Assembly (NCBI RefSeq): GCF_002585305.1
Contig: NZ_NUNF01000013.1
Coordinates: 62,001 to 126,000 of the forward strand
Reading direction: 5' to 3'
Origin: Bacillus sp. AFS037270
Lineage (GTDB): Bacteria > Bacillota > Bacilli > Bacillales_B > DSM-18226
DNA length: 64,000 nucleotides
Shown here: positions 29,638 to 51,043 of the stretch, piece by piece
How the letters are laid out: each line of letters opens with the position of its first letter
How positions within the stretch are numbered: position 1 is the stretch's first letter
The notes under the pieces: generated by a model
What the model was told of the DNA's origin: nothing
The model's database searches: none
Seen by the model: the letters and a program-made list of their open reading frames with translations, nothing else
Program-made: the position numbers and the translations under genes

Positions 29638-29689
29638 TTTTCCACTCCTCAAAGATCTTCATAATGCATACTAGAATCCAATAAATTAG

Positions 29690-31606: not shown

Positions 31607-32560
31607 TTATGAAAGTTCTCTTCGAAAAAAATCTTCAATTGTATCAAAAATCAACAAATCCATTCCTTCAACAATCTCCTCTACCCCATTCTTTGAGGCA
31701 TAATACTTTGCAATCCTTGGACCACCTTCATCTAAATTTGTACGATTCAGAAATCCATGGCCCAGCCCATTAATAAGATAAAGAGACACATTATTCTTTT
31801 TATCTGCTAGTTCCTGATATAATAACTTACTTTGATGTGCAGGAACAGCAACGTCACTTAGCCCATGCTTAATTAGAAATGGCGGAAGACTTTCTTTTAC
31901 ATAGATCAACGGATTGGCTTCCTTTACACGTTCCGGACATGTTAAAATTGGTGCTCCTAAAAACAACGATTCAAACGAATCAGGGTCAGAAGTTTTTTTA
32001 TCTTTTGGAATTTGGACTGACTCAGGATCTTCTTCGATAATTCCATATAATTCTCTTTGTTCATCGATTTGGAGAAAATCAACTGGACCATAGCCAATTA
32101 CGACAGCTTGAACGTCACTTGTCATTTCAGGATAGAGAGGATTTTCTCCGATGAATTCGTTAGGTTTTGTTGTTGCAGCAAGTGCTGCAAGATGCCCTCC
32201 TGCCGACGAGCCCCAAAGGCCTATTTTATTTCGGTCTAAACCATACTCCCCTGCGATTGTTTTAACCCACCTAACGGCTGTTTTTACATCATGAATTTGC
32301 GCAGGAAAGATAGCTTCATCACTTAACCGGTAATCAATGCTTACCATCGCATAGCCTTTGCTGGCAAAATATCGGGTGAAATCAGGACCTAATTTGCGAT
32401 CCCCAAAGCGCCATCCCCCGCCATGCAGCCAAATAATCACGGGCAGAGGCTCTTTTTTCATCTTGGGTAAATATAAATCAGCTAATAACTGTCTTCCATT
32501 TATCTCCGCGTAAACGAGATCTGTTATGATTTCTACAGTATAATCCACTAACTTTTCCAA
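31607..32560 (-). CDS. Alpha/beta hydrolase paired with quercetinase (module 1); candidate depside esterase
   Basis: 317 residues, HSL/BD-FAE-like carboxylesterase. Oxyanion motif HGGGW at 46-50, nucleophile Ser119 in WGSSAGG, acid in KHGLSDVAVP and His in GLGHGFLN. TTG start at 32560 with AAGGAGG. It follows the QdoI gene by 56 bp on the same strand, and the same pairing recurs at 47884-49889. Known biochemistry: quercetinase yields 2-protocatechuoylphloroglucinol carboxylate, an ester. The inference is that this enzyme hydrolyses it to protocatechuate and 2,4,6-trihydroxybenzoate. A general feruloyl/acetyl esterase remains possible. Confidence 0.8.
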   Translation of the reverse strand: MEKLVDYTVEIITDLVYAEINGRQLLADLYLPKMKKEPLPVIIWLHGGGWRFGDRKLGPDFTRYFASKGYAMVSIDYRLSDEAIFPAQIHDVKTAVRWVKTIAGEYGLDRNKIGLWGSSAGGHLAALAATTKPNEFIGENPLYPEMTSDVQAVVIGYGPVDFLQIDEQRELYGIIEEDPESVQIPKDKKTSDPDSFESLFLGAPILTCPERVKEANPLIYVKESLPPFLIKHGLSDVAVPAHQSKLLYQELADKKNNVSLYLINGLGHGFLNRTNLDEGGPRIAKYYASKNGVEEIVEGMDLLIFDTIEDFFRRELS

Positions 32561-32616
32561 TGAAAATCCTCCTTAAAAGATGCAATTCTTAACTAATGAT
32601 TGTCTTCTTGTCACTA

Positions 32617-33648
32617 TTAATCATTTGCTGGACGACCGCCAAGCACCTTCAGGTCAAGAATATCTAAATTTTGCAGTACTCGATCAAAACGGAGTGGAGC
32701 CGGCTCACTCGGGAAAATATAATCATCATACACATCTCCAAGAGTACGGAAAAATGCCTCGAATAGTCCCGTCGCAAGGATACCAATCATTTTTGTGTAA
32801 TGTGAATCCATTCGATAAGAATGAACTGTGTTAGCAGGCACATGGAGAATATCCCCAGGGTGTAGTGTGAGCTCTACTCCATTCGCCCACAGTGTAACCT
32901 GACCTTCAATACAGAAGAAAATTTCCGTATGCTTTTCGTGATAATGTTCAGGAATGGCTTCACCTTTAGGACCTTCTGAAACAACAAAAATAAATTCACC
33001 ATTCGAATTGGCTTGAGTTGTCATCAGGGTATGAAGTTGGTCTCCTGTAACTAAGCGAATGCCCTCTCCTGCTTCAAGGACATATGGTGCAGCCTCTTCA
33101 GGGATTTCTCCATTTTCAACTAGTTGTGATGTACCAAGAACTTGAGTATCCAAGATGAATTCTACATCTGCTGAGATTGATGCTTTTTTAAATTTCTCAA
33201 TCGAAGGTTCTTGGACTGCTTTTGGAGGATGGACAAATTTTTCGTAAGGCTCACCAATAATCGAATAGAGCTTCGAAACGTCACCTTTTGATGTAAAAGA
33301 TAAAAACTGTGTTCTATGGCTAAGCATTTGATAACTGTGAGAGGTGCCTGCAGGAATATAAGCATAATTCCCCTCGGTAAGTAGATATTTTTTATCAGCT
33401 ATCACTACTTCAAGTCTGCCATGGAGGACGTAGATTCCCTCATGACTGTATAAATGTTTATGTAATGGAAAGGAATCTCCTTTTCCTCCTGAAATAATAA
33501 CCATTTCTACTAAATTATCCGTACTCATGCCATTTGCTATAATAGTAGCAAGCTGTCTACCAAATAAGTAACGTTCCCCTTCCCCATTTCTTAGCAAATA
33601 AGGCATCTTGTAATCAGGAAGCTTATTAAACAAGGTACTCAATTTCAT
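32617..33648 (-). CDS. qdoI: Quercetin 2,3-dioxygenase, bicupin (module 1)
   Basis: 343 residues, closely similar to B. subtilis QdoI/YxaG (about 337 residues). Both cupin metal sites are intact: N-terminal His63, His65, Glu70, His104 (FPLHKHLYSHEG; PAGTSHSY) and C-terminal His235, His237, Glu242, His276 (IPEHYHEKHTE; PANTVHSY). It opens the flavonol C ring with O2, releasing CO and a depside. The ATG at 33648 lies almost on top of AGGAGG, so TTG 33642 may be the real start. First gene of module 1, divergent from a LysR regulator. Confidence 0.9.
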   Translation of the reverse strand: MKLSTLFNKLPDYKMPYLLRNGEGERYLFGRQLATIIANGMSTDNLVEMVIISGGKGDSFPLHKHLYSHEGIYVLHGRLEVVIADKKYLLTEGNYAYIPAGTSHSYQMLSHRTQFLSFTSKGDVSKLYSIIGEPYEKFVHPPKAVQEPSIEKFKKASISADVEFILDTQVLGTSQLVENGEIPEEAAPYVLEAGEGIRLVTGDQLHTLMTTQANSNGEFIFVVSEGPKGEAIPEHYHEKHTEIFFCIEGQVTLWANGVELTLHPGDILHVPANTVHSYRMDSHYTKMIGILATGLFEAFFRTLGDVYDDYIFPSEPAPLRFDRVLQNLDILDLKVLGGRPAND

Positions 33649-33831
33649 TCCTCCTAAATATTTGAACCAATTATCTAGTTACACGTGAGATTTAACACAA
33701 TTACTTCAATAGATAGTATATGGTAGAATAGTTCTTGAGAGAAATATAACTAATAGTTCACAGTTATTCCTTTTTTTCATATAGGTAATTAGTCCAGAGC
33801 AAGATATTTAGAAAGAAAGGAGCGATTGCCT

Positions 33832-34758
33832 ATGGATCTTAAACAATTACGTTACTTTGTCTCTGTTGCGGAACGATTGAGTTTTACCGAGGCAGCAGCG
33901 GAACATTTTGTTGCTCAATCTGCTATCAGTAAGCAAATCTCTAATCTTGAAGAACTGATAGGGGTTCAATTATTTATCAGAAATAGAAGAACCGTCCAAT
34001 TAACGAAGGCTGGAGCTCAATTATTAAAAGATGCCAAAGGCGTAATAGAGCATTATGAAGAAGCAATAAGTAATGCTAGACTAAGAGGAAGCGATTTGTC
34101 GGGAAGTATAAAAATTGGGTATTTAGGACTTGAGAAACTTTTTTTACCAAGACTGATTAATCAATTCACCAAGAAATATCGAGATGTTAATATTGAATTA
34201 ATTCAATACACGAGGGATACACTCAATGCCTCCTTAAAACTTGGAGATATTGATATTGGTTTTACTTTATCGTTATCAATTGATAAATTCCCCGAAATTA
34301 CCTCTAGGAAAATATCCAATATACCTTTTACAGTGGTAATGAACAGTGAACATCCTCTAGCGAACCATAGAAAAATTAGTATTACTTCGATTGCTACTGA
34401 GCCGGTTATTGTTATTAATCCAGAAGTATCCCCAGATGGATTCAAACATATTTCGGAACTCTTTATAAAGCATGATATCTCTCCAAACATCATACAGGAA
34501 TGTTCCCACTTTGAAACTGTGTTACTCATGGTTGAAGCTGGTATTGGTATTTCCATTCTTCCCGTTGCAATGGTCAATCCCCCTCCAACGCTTCGCTTTA
34601 TTGAATTAGAAGAGAATATAGAGGAAATTGATTTCATTATTGCCTGGAATAAAAATAATCTTAATCCATTAATCTCTTTATTTACGAAAGAATTTGAGTC
34701 TTTTATCGATACACACGAGGACGGACTAATATTTAAAACTAAAAAATCCACGCCATAA
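33832..34758 (+). CDS. LysR-family regulator of quercetinase module 1
   Basis: 308 residues from ATG 33832 (AAAGGAG). N-terminal winged helix (RYFVSVAERLSFTEAAAEHF, then VAQSAISKQI) and a periplasmic-binding-like effector domain (~90-295). It is divergent from qdoI, the classic arrangement for LysR activators, with about 180 bp between. It is paralogous to the LysR at 50156-51043. The B. subtilis quercetinase genes are instead under TetR-type repressors (QdoR/LmrA), so this control would differ. A flavonoid or its breakdown product is the likely inducer. Confidence 0.85.
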   Translation: MDLKQLRYFVSVAERLSFTEAAAEHFVAQSAISKQISNLEELIGVQLFIRNRRTVQLTKAGAQLLKDAKGVIEHYEEAISNARLRGSDLSGSIKIGYLGLEKLFLPRLINQFTKKYRDVNIELIQYTRDTLNASLKLGDIDIGFTLSLSIDKFPEITSRKISNIPFTVVMNSEHPLANHRKISITSIATEPVIVINPEVSPDGFKHISELFIKHDISPNIIQECSHFETVLLMVEAGIGISILPVAMVNPPPTLRFIELEENIEEIDFIIAWNKNNLNPLISLFTKEFESFIDTHEDGLIFKTKKSTP

Positions 34759-34770
34759 AGAGCGTGGATT
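34745..34770 (+). terminator. Terminator of LysR module 1
   Basis: AATCCACGC/GCGTGGATT stem overlapping the last codons of the gene, followed by TACTTC; only weakly T-rich on the plus strand but with A6 on the other side. Confidence 0.65.
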
Positions 34771-35059
34771 TACTTCATTCTCCTTTGTAATGTCAAAGGC
34801 TACTATTGAAAACATCTTTTTGAAATAGCGGGGTTGATGTTAACTGGAAAAGTTAATCCATCCATTAAAATTTGATCGTTTATCTAAGTCTAAATTACTG
34901 CATTAAAAAAGTTGGGCAAAGGACATCCTCAAAGCATGAACAGGATGTCCTATTTATGCACAACAGATATAGTTGATAAGAAGCAAACAGCTGCAAAATT
35001 TCAAAAGTTACTGAATTCTCATTTGTGGTCAGAAACTATTCTACTAGAGTTATACACTT
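34759..35059. other. Intergenic stretch with one inverted repeat
   Basis: Apart from the LysR terminator, the only structure is GGACATCCT/AGGATGTCC (34921-34950; 12-base loop), which could terminate transcription from the minus-strand LysR gene at 35060. No start-plus-site combination or recognisable gene remnant was seen. Confidence 0.5.
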
Positions 35060-35959
35060 TTATTTTATCTTTGGACTAATATATTTCCAATCAAAATTTT
35101 CTATAAAATGGACGAATGCCTTAACGACATTCCATTCAAGGGATTCCTTATGATAATACATCCACGTTCTTCGCAATATAGGGTTTCCTTCTTGATCGGT
35201 TATAAGGACTTTGGATAAGTTCTCTATACCATTAAGTACCCTGCTGGAAAGGATGCCATATCCTAAACCATTTATAACCATTTCCTTACACGTATCAACT
35301 TGGTCGACTTCTATACTGATAAAGGGTGCTTGCGCATAATTTTCAGCCCACCAATGATCAATGGTTGATTTTAATAAGTAATCCCCTCTATATTCAATTC
35401 TAGGAAGACGAGGAAGATCCATTATTTCAATCTCATCCTTTGAAGCAATGCAAATGGTTTCCTCAAATAATTGATGTTTCGATAATCCCCTGCATCCATA
35501 GTCTCCCCGAACAAAACCGATATGAACATCTTTATTGTGTATAAGCTGGGTAACGTCTCTGCTCCATCCCGTAATCACCTTGAATTCCACATGGGGAAAT
35601 TGCCTTTTAAATAGTTTCAAAATATAAGGAAGTTCATAATTCGCAAAAAAATTAGATACCCCCAATTTCAACGTACCTACCACTTTATCACTTTCGTTAT
35701 TACTCATATTTTGGACATTTTCTTTTATCTTCTCATAATGAGCAAGGGCCTCCTCAGCACATTGGACAAGATATTCCCCTTGTGGGGTAAAATGCACTCC
35801 ACGGCTTTCACGGGTTACGATTGTAACTCCCAGCTCCTCCTGCATATGCTTTAATCTACTCGTTAAAGCAGGTTGAGTAAGAAATAATAATCGAGCTGTT
35901 TTTGTAAGATTTTTTTGATTATAAAGTACTTTCAGTATTTCCCAGTCACGGTAATCCAT
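35060..35959 (-). CDS. LysR-family regulator divergent from odhA
   Basis: 299 residues. Helix-turn-helix at ~15-40 (NLTKTARLLFLTQPALTSRL), then a substrate-binding domain. CysL/CitR-like subgroup, not close to the two quercetinase LysR proteins. It sits 169 bp from and divergent to odhA, an arrangement not found at the standard Bacillus odhAB locus. It may tie 2-oxoglutarate dehydrogenase expression to a metabolite. The start has GGGTGGG only four bases from the ATG. Confidence 0.8.
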   Translation of the reverse strand: MDYRDWEILKVLYNQKNLTKTARLLFLTQPALTSRLKHMQEELGVTIVTRESRGVHFTPQGEYLVQCAEEALAHYEKIKENVQNMSNNESDKVVGTLKLGVSNFFANYELPYILKLFKRQFPHVEFKVITGWSRDVTQLIHNKDVHIGFVRGDYGCRGLSKHQLFEETICIASKDEIEIMDLPRLPRIEYRGDYLLKSTIDHWWAENYAQAPFISIEVDQVDTCKEMVINGLGYGILSSRVLNGIENLSKVLITDQEGNPILRRTWMYYHKESLEWNVVKAFVHFIENFDWKYISPKIK

Positions 35960-36128
35960 TGTCCCACCCTGTAATCTGATATAAAGATTTTTTATAAGTA
36001 AAAATAATTTTTTTGAATTTTATTTATTATCATTATTGCATTATCCTTATCCTTAATCAATTGTTAATTACTTCTATAACCTATCCAAATATTATTATAC
36101 GAAAACTCAATCATGGGGGTATTCCATA

Positions 36129-39023: not shown

Positions 39024-39079
39024 CCATGATCAACAGCAAATAACAAGATAATAATAGTACTTACTATACTTAGGAGGAT

Positions 39080-40330
39080 ATGAACTTGATGGAAATTAAG
39101 GTACCAGAGTTGGCAGAATCCATTTCAGAAGGAACGATTTCACAATGGCTCATTAATATTGGTGACAAAGTATCAAAAGGAGATAGTGTCGTAGAACTGG
39201 AAACAGATAAAGTCAATATAGAATTAAATGCTGAATATTCAGGTATCGTTACGAAGGTATTAAAAGAAACCGGCGATACGGTAGAAGTAGGCGATGTCAT
39301 TGCAATTATTGAGGATGGCACAGCTGAGGGACCCGTTGTCACCACAACAGCTCCGGAAAAATCGGTAGAAGAAACTTTAAATCAACAAAGCACCCGGTCA
39401 GAACAAGAAGTTCCGAAAGCCAACCGACCGATTGCTTCTCCAGCTGCAAGAAAATGGGCAAGAGAACTGGGAATCGATTTAAATCAGGTAAATAGCAGTG
39501 ACCCACTAGGCAGAATTATGTCAAATGATGTCAAATCCTATTCACCTGCACCTCCGGTAAAAGAAGAACCAAAATTGGAAAAGGCAAGTCCAAAACGTAA
39601 GGAACAACAAAATGATGTGGAGTTTGATAAACCTGTAGAACGTGTAAAAATGTCCCGCAGACGCCAAACCATCGCTAAACGCCTTGTAGAGGTCCAACAA
39701 ACAGCCGCGATGTTGACCACATTTAATGAAGTTGACATGTCTGCGATTATGGATTTACGCAATAAGCGGAAAGATGCCTTTTTCGATAAACATGGTGTTC
39801 GTCTTGGATTTATGTCGTTTTTTACAAAAGCAGTGGTTTCTGCCTTAAAGCAATTCCCTCTTTTAAATGCAGAAATTCAAGGAGATGAATTGCTGATCAA
39901 GAAGTTTTACGATATCGGAATTGCGGTGGCAGCTCCAGAAGGTTTGGTCGTTCCAGTTGTACGCAATGCGAATCAGAAAAATTTTGCAGAAATTGAACAA
40001 GAAATCGGTAATCTTGGTAAAAAGGCTCGTGATAACGCCCTCACTTTGAATGATTTGCAAGGTGGAACCTTTACGATTACAAATGGTGGAGTTTTTGGAT
40101 CGTTAATGTCCACACCGATTTTGAATAGTCCGCAAGTAGGCATTCTCGGTATGCATAAGATCCAGACAAGGCCAGTAGCAATTGATAGTGAACGAATGGC
40201 AAACCGTCCGATGATGTATATCGCACTGTCTTACGACCATCGAATTGTGGATGGGAAAGAAGCCGTTAGCTTCCTGGCTATGGTAAAAGAATTGTTGGAA
40301 GATCCAGAAAGCTTATTATTAGAAAGCTAA
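39080..40330 (+). CDS. odhB: 2-oxoglutarate dehydrogenase E2, dihydrolipoyl succinyltransferase
   Basis: 416 residues. Lipoyl domain ~4-77 with the modified Lys in VELETDKVN, a Pro/Glu-rich linker, a peripheral E3-binding domain ~118-155 ([14 protein letters not shown]), a second linker and the catalytic domain ~185-416 ending in [13 protein letters not shown] (His/Asp active site). It transfers succinyl to CoA. AGGAGG is at 39072-39077, too near ATG 39080, so an in-frame TTG (39086) or ATG (39089) may be used. Downstream of odhA by 56 bp. Confidence 0.95.
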
Positions 40331-40350
40331 AACTTTAGGGAGATCTATCA

Positions 40351-43025: not shown

Positions 43026-43255
43026 TTAGGTAACCGCCTTTAAATTTCCGCGGTTCATAAGAGAGATGAATGCTTTTGGTTCATACTCTTCGATTAAATC
43101 CAACACTTCACTTTCGCGGTTTCGTTTTGTTAATATTTCCAATTGGTATCTTTTACCATCACGTCCCATCCCTACAAAGACGGTAACCCCAAATCCTTTA
43201 TATCTTAATAAAGCAATAAGTTCTTCATTGATTTGCATTAAATTTACAACTAAGA
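43026..43255 (-). pseudogene. C-terminal fragment of a UPF0316 (YebE-like, DUF2179) membrane protein
   Basis: The ~75-codon frame holds LLRYKGFGVTVFVGMGRDGK, RYQLEILTKR and EPKAFIS, the soluble C-terminal domain of UPF0316 proteins, usually ~180 residues with three N-terminal membrane helices. Those helices are missing: a stop codon precedes the fragment at ~43256. The end (NRGNLKAVT) departs from the family after PKAFI, suggesting a frameshift. There is no ribosome binding site at the internal ATG 43238. Judged a pseudogene. Confidence 0.65.
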
Positions 43256-43313
43256 ATTAGCACGTAAGTCCGAGAAACTTAAAAATATTAATTTTCCATA
43301 ACCATTTCGAAAC

Positions 43314-43610
43314 TCAATCATCCTTTTTTAAAAACGGAGTGGGTTTTGACAATCTAGTCCGGATATTTAGGTGCATCTGATCAAAAACCCATGGAACTTG
43401 ACTTGAATCAAAAGATTTCCCATGGTCAAGCCAATCAACCATATTATCAGATGAAAAGACGCGATATTCTCTACTGCAGAAAATATTTTCTTCCTGATCC
43501 CAAGAACCATAGACATATACTCTTCCATCTGGCATAACATGTGCTTCTGGGTCTGGTATATGCAGGTTTGCTGGTAAAACTGGATTGCGGCAATCTTCAT
43601 ATTCTTTCAT
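43314..43610 (-). pseudogene. Truncated, frameshifted duplicate of the GH43 N-terminus
   Basis: From ATG 43610 the frame matches the GH43 enzyme at 28300-29637 over ~80 residues (DCRNPVLPANLHIPDPEAHV; YVYGSWDQEENIF; DHGKSFDSSQVPWVFD). It then shifts frame at the equivalent of DENAPKYPSS and ends after LTPFLKK-like residues. A six-codon in-frame extension to 43625 is also present, as in the intact gene. Its upstream region still carries the same promoter box. Only one propeller blade remains, so no enzyme can form. Confidence 0.85.
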
Positions 43611-43659
43611 AACCTCACTCCTCAAATGACTACTTGTTACTGTATAAAAACGTTGTACT

Positions 43660-43730
43660 CTTAGTTTAGTAGAGTTTCTTCCTTATAACTATGGCGATAT
43701 CCCCCAAATACTGTCCATTTCAAACATAAT
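43660..43730 (-). promoter_or_regulatory. Retained promoter box of the GH43 fragment
   Basis: Minus strand GTTTGAAATGGACAG, then GATATCGCCATAGTTA, then CTAAACTAAG, in the same order as at 27584-27645 and 29690-29778. It may be still active without a useful product. Confidence 0.5.
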
Positions 43731-43737
43731 AAAAAAC

Positions 43738-43762
43738 AACGCCTGAAAGAAATTCAGACGTT
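43738..43762 (-). terminator. Terminator of the aromatic operon
   Basis: AACG-C-CTGAA/TTCAG-A-CGTT with a 5-base loop and a minus-strand T-run, 42 bp after the last gene of the operon. Confidence 0.75.
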
Positions 43763-43803
43763 TATTACTTTTTTATATTTAGATTTCAATCATTATAGTG
43801 CCT

Positions 43804-44247
43804 CTACCTAAGAAGTTCGTAAACTTCTATATCTAACTTCTTAGCAAGATCAGGATTGTACGTTTTTTCGTATTCCGGTTCAACCGTTACCTTTCCTCCA
43901 TAAAACATGACATTCTCTACTTCTTCAATATCAATGGTTACCACACAAAGTTTCATCGTCTTTTCGAATACTTCAGATACTGTAGCTCTTCCACGCACTG
44001 AATAGCAGCTTCCTTCTCCAATCATTCCAACAATCACAGTAGGATTGCTTTGGATATTTGTAATACTTGATGCTTTATGACCAAGGGCTATCTTTATTTG
44101 TGTGCCGACCGGGTTAGCATTTACCCATGAAACAACACTTAATTGTGGTAGTTTTGTATCTGCATCAACCGTAATCAACGAAACCATCTTTTCTCCCTGC
44201 AAAGAAGAAGCGAGCTCAGTGCTCAGACGATCTAAAGTTTTAGTCAT
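43804..44247 (-). CDS. PNPOx-like FMN-binding split-barrel protein; possible flavin reductase partner
   Basis: 147 residues. Pyridoxamine-phosphate-oxidase-like split barrel: MVSLITVDADTKLPQLSVVS, IKIALGHKASSITNIQSNP and the CYSVRGRATVSE strand. Such proteins bind FMN, F420 or haem. It is the last gene of the operon, 20 bp after the flavin-dependent monooxygenase, which needs reduced flavin; a reductase role is therefore attractive but unproven. It is not of the usual HpaC/HsaB flavin-reductase family, which would be larger. Confidence 0.7.
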   Translation of the reverse strand: MTKTLDRLSTELASSLQGEKMVSLITVDADTKLPQLSVVSWVNANPVGTQIKIALGHKASSITNIQSNPTVIVGMIGEGSCYSVRGRATVSEVFEKTMKLCVVTIDIEEVENVMFYGGKVTVEPEYEKTYNPDLAKKLDIEVYELLR

Positions 44248-44267
44248 TATGATTCTCTCCTACTCTC

Positions 44268-45452
44268 TTAGTATTCCACTTTTACCGGAAGACCTAGCTC
44301 AAGCTTTCCGAACAGTTCTCCTACCCAATCAAAATTGAAGGCCGTATGCTGTGCTCCGGCGTGAATATCCCGCCAAAACTGTTGAAGAGGGTGACTCTCA
44401 CTAGAGGCGGCAGCACCACTGCTAGTGTAGATGGTTTCCATTGCTTCTGTACACATTTCTGCGCAATAAGCATAATTACAGCGCAAGCGTACCCGTTCCG
44501 GATATTCAAGTAACCGTCCGGACTCTACTAGTTCTAAGGATTTATGGAGAAGAGCGTCCGCTGCTTCAATTTTTGCCGCTACCTTTGCCAGACGAATTTG
44601 CTGATGGGTTAAATTTGCGACTGCTCCTCCACCCCTAGCTTTATTTTTCCCAATAACTTGGTCACGCCAAATCTCATAAGCTCCTTTGGTTGCTCCGAGA
44701 ATAACGGATAAAAGCGTAACTGGCATAACAGCTGACAATTGAATACGGTAAAGTGGTGCTGTATTCAGGTCCATCCCAGGAGAAATCCCATGAAGATTCC
44801 ATGGTTCTAACTCCATTGTTCGGTACTCGGGAACAAAAACGTCGGTTAACTGCAATAAATTACTGCCTGTTCCTCTCATACCAATGACTCGCCAAACATC
44901 AATCACTTTTAGGTCGTTTTTAGGAACGAGGAAATATAAGACTTTGGTTTCGTCTCCCACTTCCGAAACTGGTGCTGGTGCACTAATCATGATCCAATCA
45001 CAGTGATTGATTCCTGAGGAGAATCCCCATTTACCACTTAGTTTGTATCCACCATTAACACGGCTAATTTTTGAATCCGGACTTGGATTAATCGACGTAG
45101 CAAGGCATGCATCAGGGTTATTTTTCCATACATCCGCTTGTGCCTGGTCTGGAAAAAATGCCAGCATCCAGCTGTGTAATAGTAGAAGTGAATAGCACCA
45201 GCCTGTCGAAGCATCTCCTTTAGATACTTCTATTGCTGTATCAGCTAATGTTTTCCAACTAAGTTCATGCCCGCCCCAACGGCTCGGAACCAAGGATCGA
45301 ACCAAGCCTGATGAAATGAATTCTTGGATTGTTTCGGGGGGTTGGTGTCTTAGTTCTTCGCCAAGGTTTGGCCGCATTCGTAGGGAAGCAGATAATTCTT
45401 TCGCACGCTCGATCGCTTCCACATATGAGAACTTATTTAATACTTCATTCAT
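44268..45452 (-). CDS. Acyl-CoA-dehydrogenase-fold flavin-dependent monooxygenase (HsaA/HpaB-C2 type)
   Basis: 394 residues from ATG 45452 (GAGGAGG). Three-part acyl-CoA dehydrogenase fold: the N-terminal helical part, a beta domain with LSGKWGFSSGINHCDWIMIS and RGTGSNLLQLTDVFVP, and a C-terminal helical part. There is no catalytic Glu context of true acyl-CoA dehydrogenases. Instead the layout and the GxWxFxSG motif fit group D oxygenases that ortho-hydroxylate phenols with reduced flavin from a partner. Its neighbours are an extradiol dioxygenase and an FAH-family hydrolase. Predicted job: convert a monophenol or resorcinol-like acid to a catechol. Confidence 0.75.
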   Translation of the reverse strand: MNEVLNKFSYVEAIERAKELSASLRMRPNLGEELRHQPPETIQEFISSGLVRSLVPSRWGGHELSWKTLADTAIEVSKGDASTGWCYSLLLLHSWMLAFFPDQAQADVWKNNPDACLATSINPSPDSKISRVNGGYKLSGKWGFSSGINHCDWIMISAPAPVSEVGDETKVLYFLVPKNDLKVIDVWRVIGMRGTGSNLLQLTDVFVPEYRTMELEPWNLHGISPGMDLNTAPLYRIQLSAVMPVTLLSVILGATKGAYEIWRDQVIGKNKARGGGAVANLTHQQIRLAKVAAKIEAADALLHKSLELVESGRLLEYPERVRLRCNYAYCAEMCTEAMETIYTSSGAAASSESHPLQQFWRDIHAGAQHTAFNFDWVGELFGKLELGLPVKVEY

Positions 45453-45471
45453 TTTCTCATCCTCCTCAGGT

Positions 45472-46431
45472 TTATTTGTCAATGTTAGGTGTCCCATACG
45501 TGTGGAAAGTGGATGGAAGTGGTGTTCCCCATGCTAACCCTTTTTTCCGTTCTTCCGGGGTCCAAGTTACCGTTTCCCACTCTGGTGTAAAGATGAGAAA
45601 ACCGCCCGAGCATACCTCAATTCGATTACCTCCAGGCTCATACACGTATACAAACATCGTTTGACCTGCAACATGTTTATTAGGAGGTGCTTCAATGAAA
45701 ATTCCATTATCTAAAAATACATCGGCTGCCCGGAGTACCATTTCGGCACTTTCTACTTTGAATGCAGCATGATGGAAACGTCCTTGAGCACCTGATTTAT
45801 CGAGAGAAATGGCCAGGTCATAGGATTTATTCGTAACATGCAGCCAAGCGGTTGCCTGTTTGCCTTCATCGGTTATCGCTTGTTCACTTAGTCTGAAACC
45901 GAGGTGATTTCGATAAAAAGTACTATCGGCATCGACATTGGAGCTGAACAAATTAATATGATCCAGCTGCGTCACGCTTGCACCTCTTGCCGAAAACTTT
46001 TGAGGCTGATTTTTCAGACCCGGCTTTAAATGTTCCGGTGTTACAAATTTATCCGCCTCATAAAATACTTCTAATACATGCCCATCCGCATCGTAAAATT
46101 GGTAGGATCGTCCATGACCATAATCTCCATCAGTCCATCCAATTCCGTATCCGCTTTTCTCCAAATCAATAACACGCCGTTCAAGTGCTTGTTCGGAATA
46201 GGTCCTTAACGCCACATGTCCTAATCCAGCCTGACTTGCTTCCGTCAGCTTCAAGCTGTAAAGCCGCTGATCTCCCCAGCCGCGGAGAAAGACAGATTGT
46301 CCTTCTTGACGGACGATTTCCATTCCGAGTAAATCGCGAAAAAATTCAAGACTCTCGGTTGGCTTAGGTGTTAGTAGTTCAATATGTGCCAAGTAGGCGA
46401 TATCTCGAATGGGTTCGTGACTTGCTGTCAT
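45472..46431 (-). CDS. Extradiol (type I, VOC-fold) ring-cleavage dioxygenase
   Basis: 319 residues in two vicinal-oxygen-chelate domains. The C-terminal domain has the complete 2-His-1-Glu iron site: LDHINLFSS (~His180), FHHAAFKVES (~His234) and GGNRIEVCSGG (~Glu285), matching catechol 2,3-dioxygenase geometry. The N-terminal domain is the usual non-catalytic copy. It should cleave a catechol next to the hydroxyl pair with O2. Its ATG overlaps the stop of the FAH gene (ATGA-type), proving tight coupling. The monooxygenase gene follows after 19 bp. Confidence 0.85.
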   Translation of the reverse strand: MTASHEPIRDIAYLAHIELLTPKPTESLEFFRDLLGMEIVRQEGQSVFLRGWGDQRLYSLKLTEASQAGLGHVALRTYSEQALERRVIDLEKSGYGIGWTDGDYGHGRSYQFYDADGHVLEVFYEADKFVTPEHLKPGLKNQPQKFSARGASVTQLDHINLFSSNVDADSTFYRNHLGFRLSEQAITDEGKQATAWLHVTNKSYDLAISLDKSGAQGRFHHAAFKVESAEMVLRAADVFLDNGIFIEAPPNKHVAGQTMFVYVYEPGGNRIEVCSGGFLIFTPEWETVTWTPEERKKGLAWGTPLPSTFHTYGTPNIDK

Positions 46432-47366
46432 GATTCAGTCACCTCCATGATCGTTGTCTCAATCGCACCAATTCCGGAAATTTCCACCCTCACCTTATCA
46501 CCATGCTTTAAAAACTTGTTCTGTGCTTCCCCGACACCACCAGGTGTACCAGTAAGGATGATGTCCCCTGGCTCCAAAGTAACGATGCCTGATAAAAATT
46601 CAACAAGGTGATTAACATTGAACAACAGCTGTTCCGTATTGGACTTTTGCCTTAATTCATCGTTAACGGTTAAGCATATGTCTAAGCCGTGCGGATCTGG
46701 TATTTCATCCTTTGTGACTAAAACGGGTCCGAGTGGAAGACTCTTATCTAACGTTTTGCCTTGCAGCCATTGAATAGTTCGTTTTTGCATGTCACGGGCG
46801 GTAATATCGTTTGCGACAGTGTAGCCGAAGACATAGTCCAAGGCATCCTCATATGGAATGTCCTTTCCTTCTTTCCCAATGACAAATGCCAATTCTGCCT
46901 CGTAATCTAGCTTTTTAGTCAATTGGGAATTTAGCGGAAAGGTATCGTTCGGACCGGAAATCGCTGTAGCAAATTTGGCAAAAATAACTGGATGAACTGG
47001 GAAATCGCGCTTCATTTCAAGAATATGATTCTTGTAATTTAGTCCAACGCAGATGATTTTATTCGGCTTCAGTACGGGTGCCCCGATTTGAACATTTTCT
47101 TTTTTATAGAGGACGGAAGACTGTGCAGCACTTTCAAGTGCATAGGAAACCGCCTCTTTCGCGGTCTTTAGAGCCATGTCGCCATTTGCAATAAACTCTG
47201 TTGGATTGGCTGGCAATAAAGCGGTTGCAATTTCTTTCGCTCTTTGCTGCCCATTTTGATTTAATAGCTCGATATATGCTTCCTGTGGGTCTACAATCGT
47301 ATTTTCGTCAACTAAAATGCCAAGTCGTAAAGGTTTATTGTTTGTGGAATAGGTTAGTAATTTCAA
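46428..47366 (-). CDS. FAH-family (fumarylacetoacetase/HpaG-like) hydrolase or isomerase
   Basis: 312 residues from TTG 47366, with GAGGAGG upstream; the longer open frame to 47522 crosses the promoter. Metal-binding FAH core: VGLNYKNHILEM, LDYEAELAFVIGK (Glu pair) and NDITARDMQKR (Asp), then GPVLVTKDEI and ILTGTPGGVG. The family includes HpaG, acylpyruvases and oxaloacetate decarboxylases that split or isomerise products of extradiol ring cleavage. First gene of the four-gene aromatic operon. A palindrome AACACA/TGTGTT at 47391-47406 in its leader may be an operator. Confidence 0.85.
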   Translation of the reverse strand: MKLLTYSTNNKPLRLGILVDENTIVDPQEAYIELLNQNGQQRAKEIATALLPANPTEFIANGDMALKTAKEAVSYALESAAQSSVLYKKENVQIGAPVLKPNKIICVGLNYKNHILEMKRDFPVHPVIFAKFATAISGPNDTFPLNSQLTKKLDYEAELAFVIGKEGKDIPYEDALDYVFGYTVANDITARDMQKRTIQWLQGKTLDKSLPLGPVLVTKDEIPDPHGLDICLTVNDELRQKSNTEQLLFNVNHLVEFLSGIVTLEPGDIILTGTPGGVGEAQNKFLKHGDKVRVEISGIGAIETTIMEVTES

Positions 47367-47390
47367 GTGATTTCCTCCTCGTATTTTTAC

Positions 47391-47406
47391 AACACAACGA
47401 TGTGTT
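47391..47406. promoter_or_regulatory. Putative operator in the leader of the aromatic operon
   Basis: AACACA-ACGA-TGTGTT has perfect 6-bp arms and lies 24-40 bp upstream of the TTG start, a typical repressor position. No regulator gene is adjacent. Confidence 0.4.
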
Positions 47407-47569
47407 TTTCTCTTTAAATTAATGATAAGCCACAATGAAATTTTTTTGAAATACACATATTGCATTTGAGAAATCATGATTTTAGATAATTTGTCACTTT
47501 GTCTTTTCCTCTGCCGTACCAATTCCCGTTAATTTTTAAGTCGATTTTATAGAATTTGGTTAATTCATA

Positions 47570-47756
47570 GGAATTCTACAAATTAAATGCTGAATTCTAC
47601 AAAATAGAGAAGGAATTCTACAATTATTAAATTTATTCTACAAATGATGGCTTCGATTCTACATTAGTTGGTAATCAATTACCATTTTAAAAATTAATGG
47701 CCCAATTTTTACAAAAAAGGAGGATAATTCTACAAAGTCGAATGAATTCGCAACAA
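47570..47756 (-). repeat. Helically phased 20-21 bp tandem array 2 (about 9 units)
   Basis: On the minus strand units begin with TGTAGAATTC or close variants. Reference bases lie at 47579, 47600, 47621, 47641, 47662, 47682, 47712, 47733 and 47754, so steps are 21, 21, 20, 21, 20, 30, 21, 21. Best unit: TGTAGAATTCCTTCTCTAT, nearly identical to a unit of array 1 (13875-13998). The 30-bp step suggests a degenerate unit or a small insertion. It fills much of 47367-47883, ~205 bp upstream of the aromatic operon start, where no gene is seen. Confidence 0.8.
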
Positions 47757-47852
47757 AAATTGTAAATTTTGTCCAATTAAACAAAATCCAATTAAAAAGT
47801 CCATGGGCAAATCCCAATTTCTAAAATAACTTCATGGTAGAACACAAAAAAA

Positions 47853-47871
47853 ATACCCCTAAACGGAGTAT
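47853..47871 (-). terminator. Terminator of quercetinase module 2
   Basis: ATACTCC/GGGGTAT (minus strand, one G-U pair) with a 5-base loop followed by TTTTTTTT. Confidence 0.8.
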
Positions 47872-47883
47872 CTATCGACCTAA

Positions 47884-48834
47884 TCAATTTTCATGGAGAT
47901 GCTTTCGAAAAAAGGATTCTACTAACTCAAATATTCTTTTTTTACTAGACTCTATCTGTTCAGGTTCCCCTGCTTCAGCCTTACGAAGGGTAACTTGTAG
48001 AGGCAGTTCATCCAAACCATTTTTATTAAAAAATGCATGCCCCATTCCTTCAATCAAACAGAGCGCTGCCTCATTCCCGTGTTCAATCAGTGCTTGATAA
48101 AGCAGCTCACTTTGATGAACTGGTACGGCTGTATCACTTAACCCGTGTAAAATAAGAAATGGCGGGATATTTTCATCAATATAGGTGATTGGATTTGCCT
48201 CACGGACAAGGTTTGGAACCGTTTGAATGGGTGCTCCCAGCAATTGTGACTCTGGAGAATCTGGGTCAGTATGGCGCTGAACTGCATTAAGACGAATGGA
48301 TTCCGGATCATCAGAAGAAGCAGCCGTTGAATTATCGTATTCCTCCATCTGCAAGAAATCTGTAGGACCATACCCGTCAACTACTGCTTGTACGTCACTA
48401 AAATATTCCCAATTCCCTAACTTCAAATCTTCGAGCCTGCCTGAACCTGTGGTACCGGCCAAAGCCGCTAAATGTCCTCCAGCTGATGACCCCCAGAGGC
48501 CAATATGTTTGCTATCAAGACCATACTCGTTAGCTACCGAACGGAGCCAACGGATTGCGGCCTTTACATCATGAATTTGCGCAGGAAAAATCGCTTCACC
48601 GCTTAATCGATACTCAATGCTTGCCATAGCATATCCACGTTCAGCAAATCTAACTTTAAATTCCGGTCCTAGCTTTCTATCCCCAATTCGCCAACCTCCG
48701 CCGTGGAGCCAGACAATCACTGGCACTGGCCCCTCTGCTCCGATAGGCAAATAAAGATCCAGAAGTAATGATTTCCCATTTGGTGAGGCAAATTCAACAT
48801 CCGGTAGGGCCTTTACTTCATACCGATTACTCAT
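47884..48834 (-). CDS. Alpha/beta hydrolase paired with quercetinase (module 2); candidate depside esterase
   Basis: 316 residues and a clear paralogue of the hydrolase at 31607-32560. HGGGW at 44-48, nucleophile Ser117 in WGSSAGG, acid in LHGLSDTAVP and His in GMGHAFFN. It begins only 2 bp after the quercetinase stop, tighter than in module 1 (56 bp), so translational coupling is likely. Insertions around 140-190 (SAAVELS-like acidic region) differ from copy 1, which could change acyl-group choice. Function inferred as for module 1. Confidence 0.8.
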   Translation of the reverse strand: MSNRYEVKALPDVEFASPNGKSLLLDLYLPIGAEGPVPVIVWLHGGGWRIGDRKLGPEFKVRFAERGYAMASIEYRLSGEAIFPAQIHDVKAAIRWLRSVANEYGLDSKHIGLWGSSAGGHLAALAGTTGSGRLEDLKLGNWEYFSDVQAVVDGYGPTDFLQMEEYDNSTAASSDDPESIRLNAVQRHTDPDSPESQLLGAPIQTVPNLVREANPITYIDENIPPFLILHGLSDTAVPVHQSELLYQALIEHGNEAALCLIEGMGHAFFNKNGLDELPLQVTLRKAEAGEPEQIESSKKRIFELVESFFRKHLHEN

Positions 48835-48836
48835 CT

Positions 48837-49889
48837 TTAATGAACCTCTTCCACTTCAGTTGGTGGAGGACCTGGAGGCTTGCCTAATAATTTTAAATCG
48901 AGCTCATGTATACGCTGGATCACTCGGTCAAAACGATATGGTGCCGGCTCACTAGGGAAGATTGGATGTTCATACGGATCTCCAAGGATACGGAAAAAGT
49001 TTTCAAATTCCCCTGGGGTCAATAATCCAAAAAACTTTGTATAGTGGGCATCACAGCGGAAGCGATGAGGTGTATTTGCTGGAACATAGGCAAAATCCCC
49101 TGGTAATAGGTGCAATACCTCGCCATCCACCCATAGTGTCATTTCCCCTTGTAAACACATAAATGTTTCGTTGGTCAATTCATGAGCGTGCTCACCAATG
49201 GCTTGTCCTTTTGGTCCTTCGGAAACGAGTACAAGAAATTGGCTGTTTGTTGCTTCTTTTGTCGTTAGGAGTGTATGAACGGTATCACCGCTAAGAAGAT
49301 GGACTCCTTCCCCTGATTCCAGTACATACGGTTGAACTTCCTGCGGAATGGTAGAGCCTTTAGCCAATTCTGGTAAGCCAGCAGTTGGATGACTAGTGAC
49401 CAATTTTATATCAATATCAGCAGGTATTCGGGTAAAAGTATCCTGGTTTAAGAGGTTCATAGAAACTGGAGGGCGCTCAAACTTAGTAAATGGCTCTCCA
49501 ATTAGCGAATATAACTTTGCTACATGACCGTTAATAGTGAAAGAATAGAAGCGTGTTCGATGGCTTTGCATCCGATAGGCATGTACAGTGCCTGCCGGAA
49601 TACTTATATAGTCACCAGCAGTTAATAAATACAATTGTCCATTAAGTTCTACTTCAAGCCTTCCGTCGAGTACAACAATTCCTTCGTGAGCTTGTTCATG
49701 TACATGTGCCGGGAAACTGTCACCTTTTCCACCCCACAATTGAACGATCTCCATCATATCACCGGTGCTTTCAGTTGTAGCAACAATGGAGGCAACCTGG
49801 GTACCAAAAAGATATCGCTCTCCCTCTCCATTTTTAATAAAATATGGTTTCTTCTCGTTAGGTAACTTGCCAACGACTTTTAGAACCAT
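48837..49889 (-). CDS. qdoI: Quercetin 2,3-dioxygenase, bicupin (module 2)
   Basis: 350 residues. All eight metal ligands are at the numbers reported for B. subtilis QdoI: His62, His64, Glu69, His103 (FPAHVHEQAHEG; PAGTVHAY) and His234, His236, Glu241, His275 (IGEHAHELTNE; PANTPHRF). A proline-rich tail (GKPPGPPPTEVEEVH) is not seen in copy 1. Diverged from the module 1 enzyme in many surface positions, so the two may prefer different flavonols or metals. A cre-like site precedes it, and a LysR gene is divergent. Confidence 0.9.
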   Translation of the reverse strand: MVLKVVGKLPNEKKPYFIKNGEGERYLFGTQVASIVATTESTGDMMEIVQLWGGKGDSFPAHVHEQAHEGIVVLDGRLEVELNGQLYLLTAGDYISIPAGTVHAYRMQSHRTRFYSFTINGHVAKLYSLIGEPFTKFERPPVSMNLLNQDTFTRIPADIDIKLVTSHPTAGLPELAKGSTIPQEVQPYVLESGEGVHLLSGDTVHTLLTTKEATNSQFLVLVSEGPKGQAIGEHAHELTNETFMCLQGEMTLWVDGEVLHLLPGDFAYVPANTPHRFRCDAHYTKFFGLLTPGEFENFFRILGDPYEHPIFPSEPAPYRFDRVIQRIHELDLKLLGKPPGPPPTEVEEVH

Positions 49890-49920
49890 CTAACCACTCC
49901 TTATCAAATTCCTTTAAATT

Positions 49921-49934
49921 ATTAAGCGCTTTCA
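49921..49934. promoter_or_regulatory. cre-like site of quercetinase module 2
   Basis: ATTAAGCGCTTTCA (reverse TGAAAGCGCTTAAT), about 30 bp upstream of the start codon. No equivalent was noticed in module 1. Confidence 0.5.
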
Positions 49935-50155
49935 AAATAACCATAATACGAATGAAGAAAAATTGGAAATATACGTATTCGATTTCTGTAATCCCATTTT
50001 CGTATTATTTGTTGGGTTTGTCACTTTAAGAGATCAATTCTTGTGGAAGAATACTAGTTTCTACATCGTGTTAATTCAAGAATAATCGCATAATTTCGAC
50101 TACTTATTATCTAATATGATAAAATAACGGTAAATAAATGACAAGTGAGGACCCT

Positions 50156-51043
50156 ATGGATATTCGACAATTGCGCTATTTTATTACCGTAGCTGAGCAC
50201 TTAAATTTTACAAAAGCAGCCAACCAACTCTATGTTGCTCAATCAGCGATCAGCCATCAGATTGCCGATTTGGAAGAACAAGTGGGCGTAAAATTATTTA
50301 TTCGAAATAAGCGCTCCGTCCAGCTTACACCGGCTGGGGCTGTCTTTTTAAAAGATGCAATGGAGATTGTAGAAAAAACATCGGGGGCCATCGAAAAAGC
50401 TAAACAAACGGATGCAGGTGTGATTGGCAGTATTTCGATTGGTTTTTTGAGTGTTCATGTTCGTGGTTTTCTACCAGAGGTTATCAAACGGTTCCGTGAA
50501 CTTTATCCGAAGGTAGACCTACAGCTGAACCACTTCCCTAGTAAAATGCTAAAAGAAGCGTTGGAAGAAGGAGAATTGGACATCGCTTTTACACAGCCGT
50601 CTGGGTTAAATAGAATTGAAGAAATTGAGATTCAAACGGTAGCAAAAGATAAATATTGTATTGTTATGCATAAGAACCACCCTCTTGCTAATCGCAAAAC
50701 AATTAAGCTTGTTGATCTTGCCACAGAGCCATTCATTATCCATAACCGTCATGATTCACCTATAGGTTCCTATGATTTTATCGTCCATTTATGTGAACAA
50801 AATGGGCTGACTCCGAGAATTGTGAGTCAACCGCGCTTTGTTGATACTGTACCGATTCTCGTTGAATCTGAAATGGGCATCTCTATACTGCCAAAAAGCT
50901 TTGAAGCGGTATCCAGCCCTACGCTTCGATTTATCGAAATTGACGGCCTGGAGGGGCATGATTTTGAACTCGTTATGGCATGGAAGAAAAACAATTTGAA
51001 TCCGTCTATATCACTGTTTCTAGATGTTCTATGCATAAAATAA
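50156..51043 (+). CDS. LysR-family regulator of quercetinase module 2
   Basis: 295 residues from ATG 50156 (GAGG six bases upstream; another in-frame ATG is at 50138). Helix-turn-helix RYFITVAEHLNFTKAANQL, then YVAQSAISHQI; effector domain follows. It is a paralogue of the LysR at 33832-34758 and sits in the same divergent position 266 bp from its quercetinase, confirming that the three-gene module was duplicated or acquired twice as a unit. Confidence 0.85.
   Translation: MDIRQLRYFITVAEHLNFTKAANQLYVAQSAISHQIADLEEQVGVKLFIRNKRSVQLTPAGAVFLKDAMEIVEKTSGAIEKAKQTDAGVIGSISIGFLSVHVRGFLPEVIKRFRELYPKVDLQLNHFPSKMLKEALEEGELDIAFTQPSGLNRIEEIEIQTVAKDKYCIVMHKNHPLANRKTIKLVDLATEPFIIHNRHDSPIGSYDFIVHLCEQNGLTPRIVSQPRFVDTVPILVESEMGISILPKSFEAVSSPTLRFIEIDGLEGHDFELVMAWKKNNLNPSISLFLDVLCIK

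What the first reader, a model, noticed from the sequence alone, without database searches (positions are those of the whole stretch)
31607..51043. Candidate flavonol-glycoside catabolic system with two quercetinase-hydrolase-LysR modules
Seen: two copies of a bicupin quercetinase with all eight metal ligands, each directly followed by an alpha/beta hydrolase and divergent from a paralogous LysR gene. Known: quercetinase makes a depside ester plus CO. The window also has two GH78 rhamnosidases, a GH1 enzyme, full rhamnose catabolism and an extradiol operon. Inference: together they would take a rhamnosyl-flavonoid such as rutin down to central metabolites, with the hydrolases as depside esterases. 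I do not recall such a complete set described in one bacillar locus.
Basis: partly seen in the sequence, partly recalled or inferred. Interest (0 to 1): 0.85.

Follow-up and report, generated by a model that had tools for sequence, protein, structure and literature searches.

The report
Flavonol-breakdown operon paired with esterase
This soil-bacterium locus carries two copies of an enzyme that opens plant flavonols such as quercetin, each beside a predicted esterase for the product, and one copy heads a conserved gene set that probably digests the product as food, unlike Bacillus subtilis, where the same enzyme is seen as a detoxifier.

Summary
In detail: two bicupin quercetinases (53% identical, all eight metal ligands), each followed by a BD-FAE-type hydrolase and divergent from a LysR gene. 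The pairing is selective and conserved. In 193 genomes of one family, 22 cupin and 14 such hydrolase copies were found; all 14 hydrolases lie 6-168 nt from a cupin, and all 11 module-2-type cupins have one (one broken). Module 2 is a conserved order, cupin-esterase-FAH-extradiol-monooxygenase-reductase, with a candidate LysR box. B. subtilis QdoI lies in another clade without such hydrolases; 11 of 19 hydrolase-less loci inspected have a TetR-like gene upstream. In Robertmurraya and Cohnella a pra-like (protocatechuate 2,3-cleavage) cluster lies near the operon. A PraA-like dioxygenase is in 11 of 11 esterase-bearing genomes, 26 of 182 others and 0 of 7 cupin-only genomes. Best reading: flavonol catabolism by quercetinase and depside esterase, with protocatechuate going to pra and the phloroglucinol half to the four-gene set. 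No activity was tested. New variant of a known kind.

The parts
31607..32560 (-). hyd1: BD-FAE-type serine hydrolase, predicted depside esterase of module 1
   Evidence: Pfam PF20434 211 bits; catalytic motifs conserved
32617..33648 (-). cup1: bicupin quercetin 2,3-dioxygenase
   Evidence: 467 bits to YxaG 2h0v; eight ligands
33746..33767 (-). candidate LysR1 operator, inverted repeat ATAACT-N10-AGTTAT
   Evidence: present in 4 of 4 module-1 upstream regions
33826..34758 (+). lysR1: LysR-type regulator
   Evidence: Pfam LysR_substrate and HTH_1
43804..44247 (-). red: small PNPOx-fold protein, assumed flavin reductase or flavin partner of the monooxygenase
   Evidence: PF01243 weak, below cut-off; NCBIfam PRK06733 'hypothetical protein'; role inferred from position
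44268..45497 (-). mono: HsaA/HpaH-C2-type flavin monooxygenase oxygenase component
   Evidence: NCBIfam HsaA 287 bits, below the 450 cut-off; PDB 2rfq 223 bits
45472..46431 (-). exd: type I extradiol dioxygenase
   Evidence: 9wgj 411 bits, named 'Catechol 1,2-dioxygenase' by depositors; 3lm4 256 bits; TIGR03211 304 bits, cut-off 320
46428..47522 (-). FAH: FAH-family enzyme, presumed C-C hydrolase; most orthologues are 311-312 aa, so the true start is near 47366
   Evidence: PF01557 237 bits; best NCBIfam 2,4-didehydro-3-deoxy-L-rhamnonate hydrolase 205 bits, cut-off 500; NYxxHxxEM stretch shared with 8sky, 6j57, 6iym; orthologue lengths
47884..48834 (-). hyd2: BD-FAE-type serine hydrolase, predicted depside esterase of module 2
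   Evidence: PF20434 229 bits; AlphaFold2 model pLDDT 87.6, nearest solved fold 6nkf, TM 0.78
48837..49889 (-). cup2: bicupin quercetin 2,3-dioxygenase of module 2
   Evidence: 406 bits to 2h0v; eight ligands; clade of 15 rows in the tree
49921..49934 (-). cre-like site (CcpA) just upstream of cup2
   Evidence: TGAAAGCGCTTAAT, 2 mismatches to the consensus; 8 of 12 module-2 regions within 2 mismatches; not among the 5 matches of a stricter consensus
49981..49993 (-). candidate LysR2 box GATTACAGAAATC (GATT-N5-AATC)
   Evidence: identical in 12 of 12 upstream regions examined, from 11 genomes incl. the window; only exact copy in the window; not found in Cohnella
50138..51043 (+). lysR2: LysR-type regulator
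   Evidence: Pfam; orthologue kept beside the operon in relatives
51086..53155 (-). class II aldolase/short-chain dehydrogenase fusion (rhamnulose-1-P aldolase/lactaldehyde dehydrogenase type), sugar half of the substrate
   Evidence: PF00596 and PF13561; near the operon in L001-L003
6835..9795 (-). GH78 rhamnosidase a
   Evidence: PF17389 401 bits
23248..26079 (-). GH78 rhamnosidase b, near module 1 in 3 of 3 relatives
   Evidence: PF17389 363 bits; L021, L022, L027

Best explanation
An inducible flavonol-catabolism system. (1) Intracellular GH78/GH1 enzymes remove rhamnose and glucose from imported flavonol glycosides (inferred). (2) Cup1 and Cup2 cleave the flavonol C-ring, giving CO and the depside 2-protocatechuoyl-phloroglucinol carboxylate (known chemistry of the family; membership shown by sequence). 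(3) Hyd1 and Hyd2 hydrolyse the depside ester to protocatechuate and 2,4,6-trihydroxybenzoate (inferred; strong context). (4) Protocatechuate goes to a pra-like 2,3-cleavage cluster, elsewhere in the genome in Neobacillus-type relatives, near the operon in Robertmurraya and Cohnella (gene content shown in relatives, function inferred). (5) The other half, 2,4,6-trihydroxybenzoate or phloroglucinol, is hydroxylated by Mono/Red, ring-opened by Exd and split by FAH. The most economical chemistry, worked out here on paper, is 1,2,3,5-tetrahydroxybenzene, then 2,4-dioxoadipate, then pyruvate + malonate (speculative). (6) LysR2 acts through the GATTACAGAAATC box and CcpA represses through the cre-like site (inferred).
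For: In 193 genomes of one family: 14 of 14 hydrolase copies lie 6-168 nt from a cupin; 11 of 11 module-2-type cupins have one (that of G157 is broken by stops); hydrolase x cupin co-occurrence p=1e-13. Exd in 12 of 193, 11 of them the hydrolase genomes. PraA-like LigB in 11 of 11 hydrolase genomes, 26 of 182 others (p=3e-9) and 0 of 7 cupin-only genomes (genomes are related, so p overstates). Six-gene order in 9 of 10 module-2 loci, once with an inserted gene and once with a broken esterase; the tenth contig ends after the esterase. Pra-like genes near the operon in Cohnella and Robertmurraya; at least five of them clustered in 8 of 8 other relatives checked. Cohnella has a gene of the 4,5-dihydroxyphthalate decarboxylase family (9jp7, 298 bits) between esterase and FAH, as a trihydroxybenzoate decarboxylation step would need. 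Cupin and hydrolase distances correlate: r=0.90 for 25 pairs; r=0.70 for 11 non-redundant pairs, reached by 1 of 5000 permutations. Operator and cre-like sites.
Against: No activity, substrate or expression data. Exd scores best against catechol 2,3-dioxygenase models, so its substrate is open. Red is only weakly a PNPOx protein. A gap of about 517 nt with a weak hairpin lies between hyd2 and FAH, so one transcript is not shown. G147 keeps exd-mono-red beside the aldolase fusion without cupin, esterase or FAH there, so the set may have another use. 7 of 8 relatives' pra-like clusters lack the aldolase and acetaldehyde dehydrogenase genes in the fetched stretch. No rhamnose gene was seen beside the operon in 4 of 12 genomes. 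In Cohnella LysR2 is at the far end and the box was not found. The cup2 cre-like site misses a stricter consensus.
Confidence: 0.72

Rival explanations
1. The FAH-exd-mono-red set serves the protocatechuate/4-hydroxybenzoate (B-ring) half, or catechol made from it, and the A-ring half is excreted or degraded elsewhere.
For: Exd is close to the catechol 2,3-dioxygenase model (304 bits, cut-off 320). The decarboxylase in Cohnella could act on protocatechuate.
Against: All 11 esterase-bearing genomes of the family also have the PraA-like dioxygenase, and 8 of 8 checked outside Robertmurraya have it in a pra-like cluster, so the B-ring half seems provided for. In Robertmurraya and Cohnella both sets lie close together.
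Confidence: 0.18
2. An A-ring-first flavonoid route like fde/ifc: Mono hydroxylates the intact flavonoid A-ring, Exd opens it, and cupin and hydrolase act on later products.
For: The fde/ifc clusters also combine a flavin monooxygenase, a glyoxalase-type enzyme, cupins and an alpha/beta hydrolase (PMC11069340, passages).
Against: Cup1 and Cup2 are full-length relatives of a proven C-ring-cleaving quercetinase with all ligands. Mono is HsaA-type, not the FAD-binding monooxygenase type described for FdeE/IfcA. The pra-like genes fit release of a C6-C1 acid.
Confidence: 0.08
3. Flavonoid detoxification only, as in B. subtilis; the hydrolase and neighbours are for plant cell-wall sugars (feruloyl or acetyl esters, pectin).
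For: Two more BD-FAE genes, GH43 genes and sugar transporters are in the window; nearest solved folds of Hyd2 are lipase- and carbohydrate-esterase-like. QdoI in B. subtilis is described as a detoxifier (PMC8481877, passages).
Against: In the 193 genomes the hydrolase was found only beside cupins at this threshold (14 of 14); it co-varies with the cupin; LysR not TetR neighbours; cre-like site; link with ring-cleavage genes.
Confidence: 0.1
4. FAH belongs to rhamnose breakdown (2,4-diketo-3-deoxyrhamnonate hydrolase) rather than to the aromatic branch.
For: Best NCBIfam model is that hydrolase, at 205 bits, well under its 500 cut-off; rhamnose genes nearby.
Against: FAH overlaps exd by 4 nt in the window and lies next to exd in the module-2 loci mapped, including Robertmurraya without rhamnose genes beside it; the window has the phosphorylating route (rhaA, rhaB, aldolase fusion).
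Confidence: 0.07

Closest known systems
B. subtilis QdoI/YxaG with QdoR/LmrA (yxaGH, lmrAB regulon)
   Same: Bicupin quercetin 2,3-dioxygenase; 54% identical to cup2, about 60% between cup1 and B. subtilis-group copies; all metal ligands
   Different: There TetR-repressed and described as detoxification (PMC8481877, passages); here LysR, esterase partner, ring-cleavage genes and cre-like site; separate branch of the tree
Protocatechuate 2,3-cleavage pathway (pra) of Paenibacillus sp. JJ-1b
   Same: Genes near the operon in Cohnella and Robertmurraya include LigB dioxygenase, semialdehyde dehydrogenase, two FAA-family enzymes, aldolase, acetaldehyde dehydrogenase, PobA-like and amidohydrolase genes
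   Different: Not found in the window; PraA identity judged from gene content (partly recalled), not by comparison with the JJ-1b protein. Kasai 2009 not held; pra seen in passages of PMC12455638 and PMC7022639
fde (Herbaspirillum) and ifc (Variovorax) flavonoid clusters
   Same: Flavin monooxygenase, glyoxalase-type enzyme, cupin, alpha/beta hydrolase
   Different: Those open the A-ring first (PMC11069340, passages); here a C-ring-cleaving quercetinase and an HsaA-type monooxygenase
Fungal rutin system of Aspergillus (rutinase, quercetinase, phenol carboxylic acid esterase)
   Same: Same predicted sequence of steps
   Different: Recalled, not looked up; unrelated lineage; I know of no bacterial gene for the depside esterase
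Aerobic phloroglucinol/resorcinol routes via hydroxyquinol
   Same: Ring hydroxylation before cleavage
   Different: Those use intradiol cleavage (recalled); here a type I extradiol enzyme plus an FAH-family enzyme

Membership tests
Bicupin quercetin 2,3-dioxygenase (QdoI/YxaG) | full-length sequence match to a proven member | tested here: met
   467 and 406 bits over 328-329 residues
Bicupin quercetin 2,3-dioxygenase (QdoI/YxaG) | 3His-1Glu ligands in both cupin domains | tested here: met
   8 of 8 in both
Bicupin quercetin 2,3-dioxygenase (QdoI/YxaG) | CO release from quercetin | not testable with these tools
   needs enzyme assay
BD-FAE/alpha-beta hydrolase esterase | oxyanion HGGG, GxSxG serine, Asp, His | tested here: met
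   invariant in 22 of 22; fold supported by the model
Depside esterase (functional class) | hydrolysis of the quercetinase product | not testable with these tools
   context only
QdoR/LmrA-regulated detoxification regulon | LmrA/YxaF-type TetR gene beside the cupin | tested here: not met
   the divergent neighbours of both cupins are LysR genes; PF21993 in 4 of 4 TetR genes tested beside hydrolase-less cupins
pra protocatechuate 2,3-cleavage cluster | LigB, semialdehyde dehydrogenase, hydratase/decarboxylase, amidohydrolase set | tested here: not met
   none of nine pra-like proteins matches the window; found in relatives
fde/ifc A-ring-first cluster | FdeE/IfcA-type FAD-binding monooxygenase | tested here: not met
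   the operon's monooxygenase matches acyl-CoA-dehydrogenase-fold HsaA models
Type I extradiol dioxygenase | two glyoxalase domains with His/His/Glu site | tested here: met
   PF00903, 2 stretches; LDHIN, HH and GNRIEV stretches align with 9wgj and 3lm4; site assignment recalled
FAH-family 2,4-diketo acid hydrolase (NF053535) | curated model cut-off | tested here: not met
   205 bits against a 500 cut-off; superfamily PF01557 met

The most novel reading that the evidence does not exclude
The four genes FAH-exd-mono-red encode an undescribed aerobic route for the flavonoid A-ring: 2,4,6-trihydroxybenzoate or phloroglucinol is hydroxylated to 1,2,3,5-tetrahydroxybenzene, ring-opened by a type I extradiol enzyme to 2,4-dioxoadipate, and split by an acylpyruvase-type FAH enzyme to pyruvate and malonate. 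With the paired depside esterase and a pra cluster this gives full aerobic mineralisation of flavonols in Bacillales, and B. subtilis QdoI is a detoxification offshoot of this catabolic family.
Probability: 0.35. Interest if true: 0.78.

Novelty: new variant of a known kind. Interest (0 to 1): 0.6.

Why it matters
Quercetinases are well known, but in Bacillus they were described as detoxifiers, with no fate given for the depside product in what I saw. A conserved esterase partner and a ring-cleavage set would close the path from flavonol to central metabolism, give the bacterial depside esterase a gene, and offer a testable aerobic route for the phloroglucinol ring. It would also explain how Neobacillus, Robertmurraya and Cohnella could feed on plant flavonols.

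Tried and rejected
Tried: (a) the 'extradiol operon serves protocatechuate' reading: demoted, because a PraA-like dioxygenase is in all 11 esterase-bearing genomes of the family and none of nine pra-like proteins matches the window. (b) A relic of the Cohnella decarboxylase in the hyd2-FAH gap: no tblastn match in the window or in the loci held then, other than Cohnella's own. (c) A phased GTAGAAT repeat in that gap as an operator of this operon: dropped, since such arrays also lie beside other genes. (d) Rfam: no hit in the window at gathering scores. (e) Promoter and terminator scans: not above shuffles. (f) LysR2 box in Cohnella or in the fetched pra stretches: no site with fewer than two mismatches. 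(g) Literature: the listings (some capped at 15 or 20 titles) showed nothing that describes this operon, a bacterial depside-esterase gene or the tetrahydroxybenzene route; only openly licensed papers are searched. Dropped rows: L046-L048 (weak matches) were left out of the 45-locus count; the split cupin of L040 was left out of the tree (58 rows), and long ORFs were cut to their last 345 residues there. 'No hydrolase' in that tree means no hit of at least 45% identity to Hyd1/Hyd2 starting within 400 nt of the cupin's end; 4 rows were not examined. Several long branches and a quick method limit the tree. On rechecking I withdrew a statement that two further cupins (G179, G180) are broken: their open frames are of full length.
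Full report
WHAT IS THERE. The two modules are as described. Both cupins are full-length relatives of B. subtilis QdoI/YxaG and keep all eight metal ligands (ligand roles recalled). Both neighbours are BD-FAE-type hydrolases with intact catalytic motifs. The AlphaFold2 model of Hyd2 (22-sequence alignment, mean pLDDT 87.6) matches the rumen lipase Lip_vut4 and gut carbohydrate esterases best, which says esterase but not which ester. Downstream of module 2 on the same strand lie FAH, a type I extradiol dioxygenase (exd), an HsaA-type monooxygenase (mono) and a small PNPOx-like protein (red). FAH overlaps exd by 4 nt, and exd overlaps mono by 26 nt as the ORFs are listed. Between the modules lie a CcpC-like regulator, 2-oxoglutarate dehydrogenase genes, a thioesterase and malic enzyme, which do not belong to the system.

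IS THE PAIRING REAL. A pattern-based scan of one genome per species gave 48 loci, of which 45 hold a bicupin (3 weak ones dropped). The hydrolase sits next to the cupin in 13 of 45: all 10 of the module-2 type and 3 Neobacillus-group loci of the module-1 type. The order cupin-esterase-FAH-exd-mono-red is kept in 9 of the 10 module-2 loci, one of them (Cohnella) with an inserted gene and one (L006) with a split esterase; the tenth contig ends after the esterase. In 193 genomes of the N. drentensis family, 22 cupin copies occur in 18 genomes at E<=1e-60 and 14 hydrolase copies in 11 genomes at E<=1e-70. All 14 lie 6-168 nt from a cupin. All 11 module-2-type cupins have one, that of G157 being broken; 3 of the other 11 do. 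Exd at E<=1e-90 is in 12 of 193, 11 of these being the hydrolase genomes; the twelfth, G147, keeps exd-mono-red beside the aldolase fusion without cupin, esterase or FAH there. In a phylum sample around Cohnella, exd relatives at that threshold are in 3 of 398 genomes, one being Cohnella itself and the others 47-50% identical. Cupin and hydrolase distances correlate (25 pairs r=0.90; 11 non-redundant pairs r=0.70, 1 of 5000 permutations; 14 of the 25 pairs rest on equal contig lengths). The hydrolase superfamily is huge: 7835 proteins at E<=1e-30, 120 listed, and only 14 of those 120 could be tied to a cupin in this way.

TWO KINDS OF QUERCETINASE CONTEXT. In 11 of 19 hydrolase-less loci inspected, a short regulator gene lies just upstream (judged from its N-terminus). 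Four were tested and all are LmrA/YxaF-type TetR proteins. Of five downstream genes tested, four are MFS (L015, L018, L028, L029) and one DUF418 (L012). This resembles B. subtilis, for which the cited paper describes detoxification (PMC8481877, passages). In a 58-row tree B. subtilis QdoI lies in a 27-row clade (support 96) in which 25 rows have no such hydrolase neighbour and 2, QdoI itself among them, were not examined. Module-2 cupins form a 15-row clade (100) and module-1 cupins a 5-row clade (100) (quick tree, several long branches). Some hydrolase-paired cupins sit near the root, so the paired form may be old, but the root is not secure.

WHERE THE TWO HALVES GO. Quercetinase yields a depside of protocatechuate with phloroglucinol carboxylate (known chemistry; also stated). 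In Cohnella sp. WQ 127256 the operon is followed by LysR2, an IclR regulator, a LigB dioxygenase, a hydroxymuconic-semialdehyde dehydrogenase, two FAA-family enzymes, an acetaldehyde dehydrogenase, an aldolase, a PF04909 amidohydrolase and a PobA-like hydroxylase. In two Robertmurraya-type genomes (G006, G190) the same kinds of gene follow within about 17 kb, with TRAP-transporter and Rieske-oxygenase genes in between. This content resembles the protocatechuate 2,3-cleavage (pra) pathway; I could not compare with the original PraA. The LigB protein is present in 37 of 193 genomes: 11 of 11 hydrolase genomes, 26 of 182 others (Fisher p=3e-9, inflated by kinship) and 0 of 7 genomes with only hydrolase-less cupins. 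In 8 of 8 further relatives LigB lies with the dehydrogenase, both FAA-family genes and IclR; the amidohydrolase is seen in 7 of 8, PobA in 4 of 8, and aldolase plus acetaldehyde dehydrogenase in 1 of 8 of the fetched stretches. A similar lack of the last two is reported for B. licheniformis TAB7 (PMC7022639, passages). So the protocatechuate half seems cared for, and the window's four-gene set is left for the other half. Cohnella has a 4,5-dihydroxyphthalate-decarboxylase-type gene (298 bits to 9jp7) between esterase and FAH, as a trihydroxybenzoate decarboxylation step would need. A paralogue of exd (54-55%) in two genomes sits beside PIG-L, RraA-like and L-PSP genes (Pfam run in L071 only), the first two of which I recall as gallate-pathway types; this suggests that the subfamily handles polyhydroxylated rings.

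PROPOSED A-RING CHEMISTRY (inference). Hydroxylation of phloroglucinol gives 1,2,3,5-tetrahydroxybenzene. Extradiol cleavage between two oxygenated carbons gives 2,4-dioxoadipate, an acylpyruvate. An FAH-family hydrolase with the NYxxHxxEM stretch would split it to pyruvate and malonate. None of these steps was tested.

REGULATION. The module-2 intergenic region holds GATTACAGAAATC in 12 of 12 regions examined, from 11 genomes; it is the only exact copy in the window. A cre-like site lies near the cup2 start in 8 of 12 regions within 2 mismatches, and an exact match to that consensus is visible upstream of Cohnella cup2. Cre-like sites are enriched in the whole window (37 against 13 expected); with a stricter consensus 5 are found against 1.3 expected, and the cup2 site is not among them. 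Module 1 has its own inverted repeat in 4 of 4 regions. The LysR2 box was not found in Cohnella.

SUGAR SIDE. GH78 or rhamnose-catabolism genes lie in the fetched flanks (about 10 kb) of the module-2 operon in 8 of 12 genomes, and GH78b with an MFS gene near module 1 in 3 of 3. The GH78 and GH1 proteins show no strongly hydrophobic N-terminus in a crude check with uncertain start codons, whereas the solute-binding protein does. A rutin-type substrate is plausible, but pectin-derived rhamnosides are not excluded.

NOVELTY. Ten literature searches listed no description of this operon or of a bacterial depside-esterase gene; I saw listings, and passages of five papers (PMC12455638, PMC7022639, PMC11069340, PMC8481877, PMC8552027). 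The library is limited to openly licensed papers. I file it as a new variant of a known kind: a quercetinase-based catabolic operon with a predicted esterase and a possibly new A-ring route.

Noticed in passing
window 47574-47663 (-) and 13876-13985 (+); also L003 12092, L009 12087, and elsewhere in G001, G002, G003, G004, G007: Arrays of GTAGAAT cores spaced 20-21 nt (two helix turns) with differing spacers, in intergenic gaps of some Neobacillus-group genomes; 5 of 12 genomes searched have them and the reversed-pattern control gave 0. They lie beside varied genes (ilvB/ilvD-like, fumarase-like, NAPRT-like, as read from sequence). Function unknown.
   Followed up: partly
window 3161-5674: An AraC-type regulator fused to a GH39 domain in one 837-aa protein.
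   Followed up: no
window 43314-43625: Short ORF resembling, by eye, the N-terminus of the GH43 gene at 28300-29652 and of a Cohnella gene (L076:3-662); looks like a gene remnant beside red. No Pfam match at E<=1e-5.
   Followed up: partly
L068 11128-12076 (G157); L040 10001-11010 (G006): Two copies are split: the esterase in G157 and a second, hydrolase-less cupin in G006, perhaps recent losses of function or sequencing errors.
   Followed up: no
L071 8962-11970 and L072: Second extradiol paralogue (54-55%) in a cluster with PIG-L, RraA-like and L-PSP genes, perhaps a gallate-type pathway with a type I dioxygenase.
   Followed up: partly
L067 7681-12618 (G147): exd-mono-red beside the aldolase fusion, without cupin, esterase or FAH at that locus.
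   Followed up: no
window 589-1494 and 58374-59165: Two further BD-FAE-type hydrolases (92 and 87 bits), more distant from Hyd1/Hyd2.
   Followed up: no
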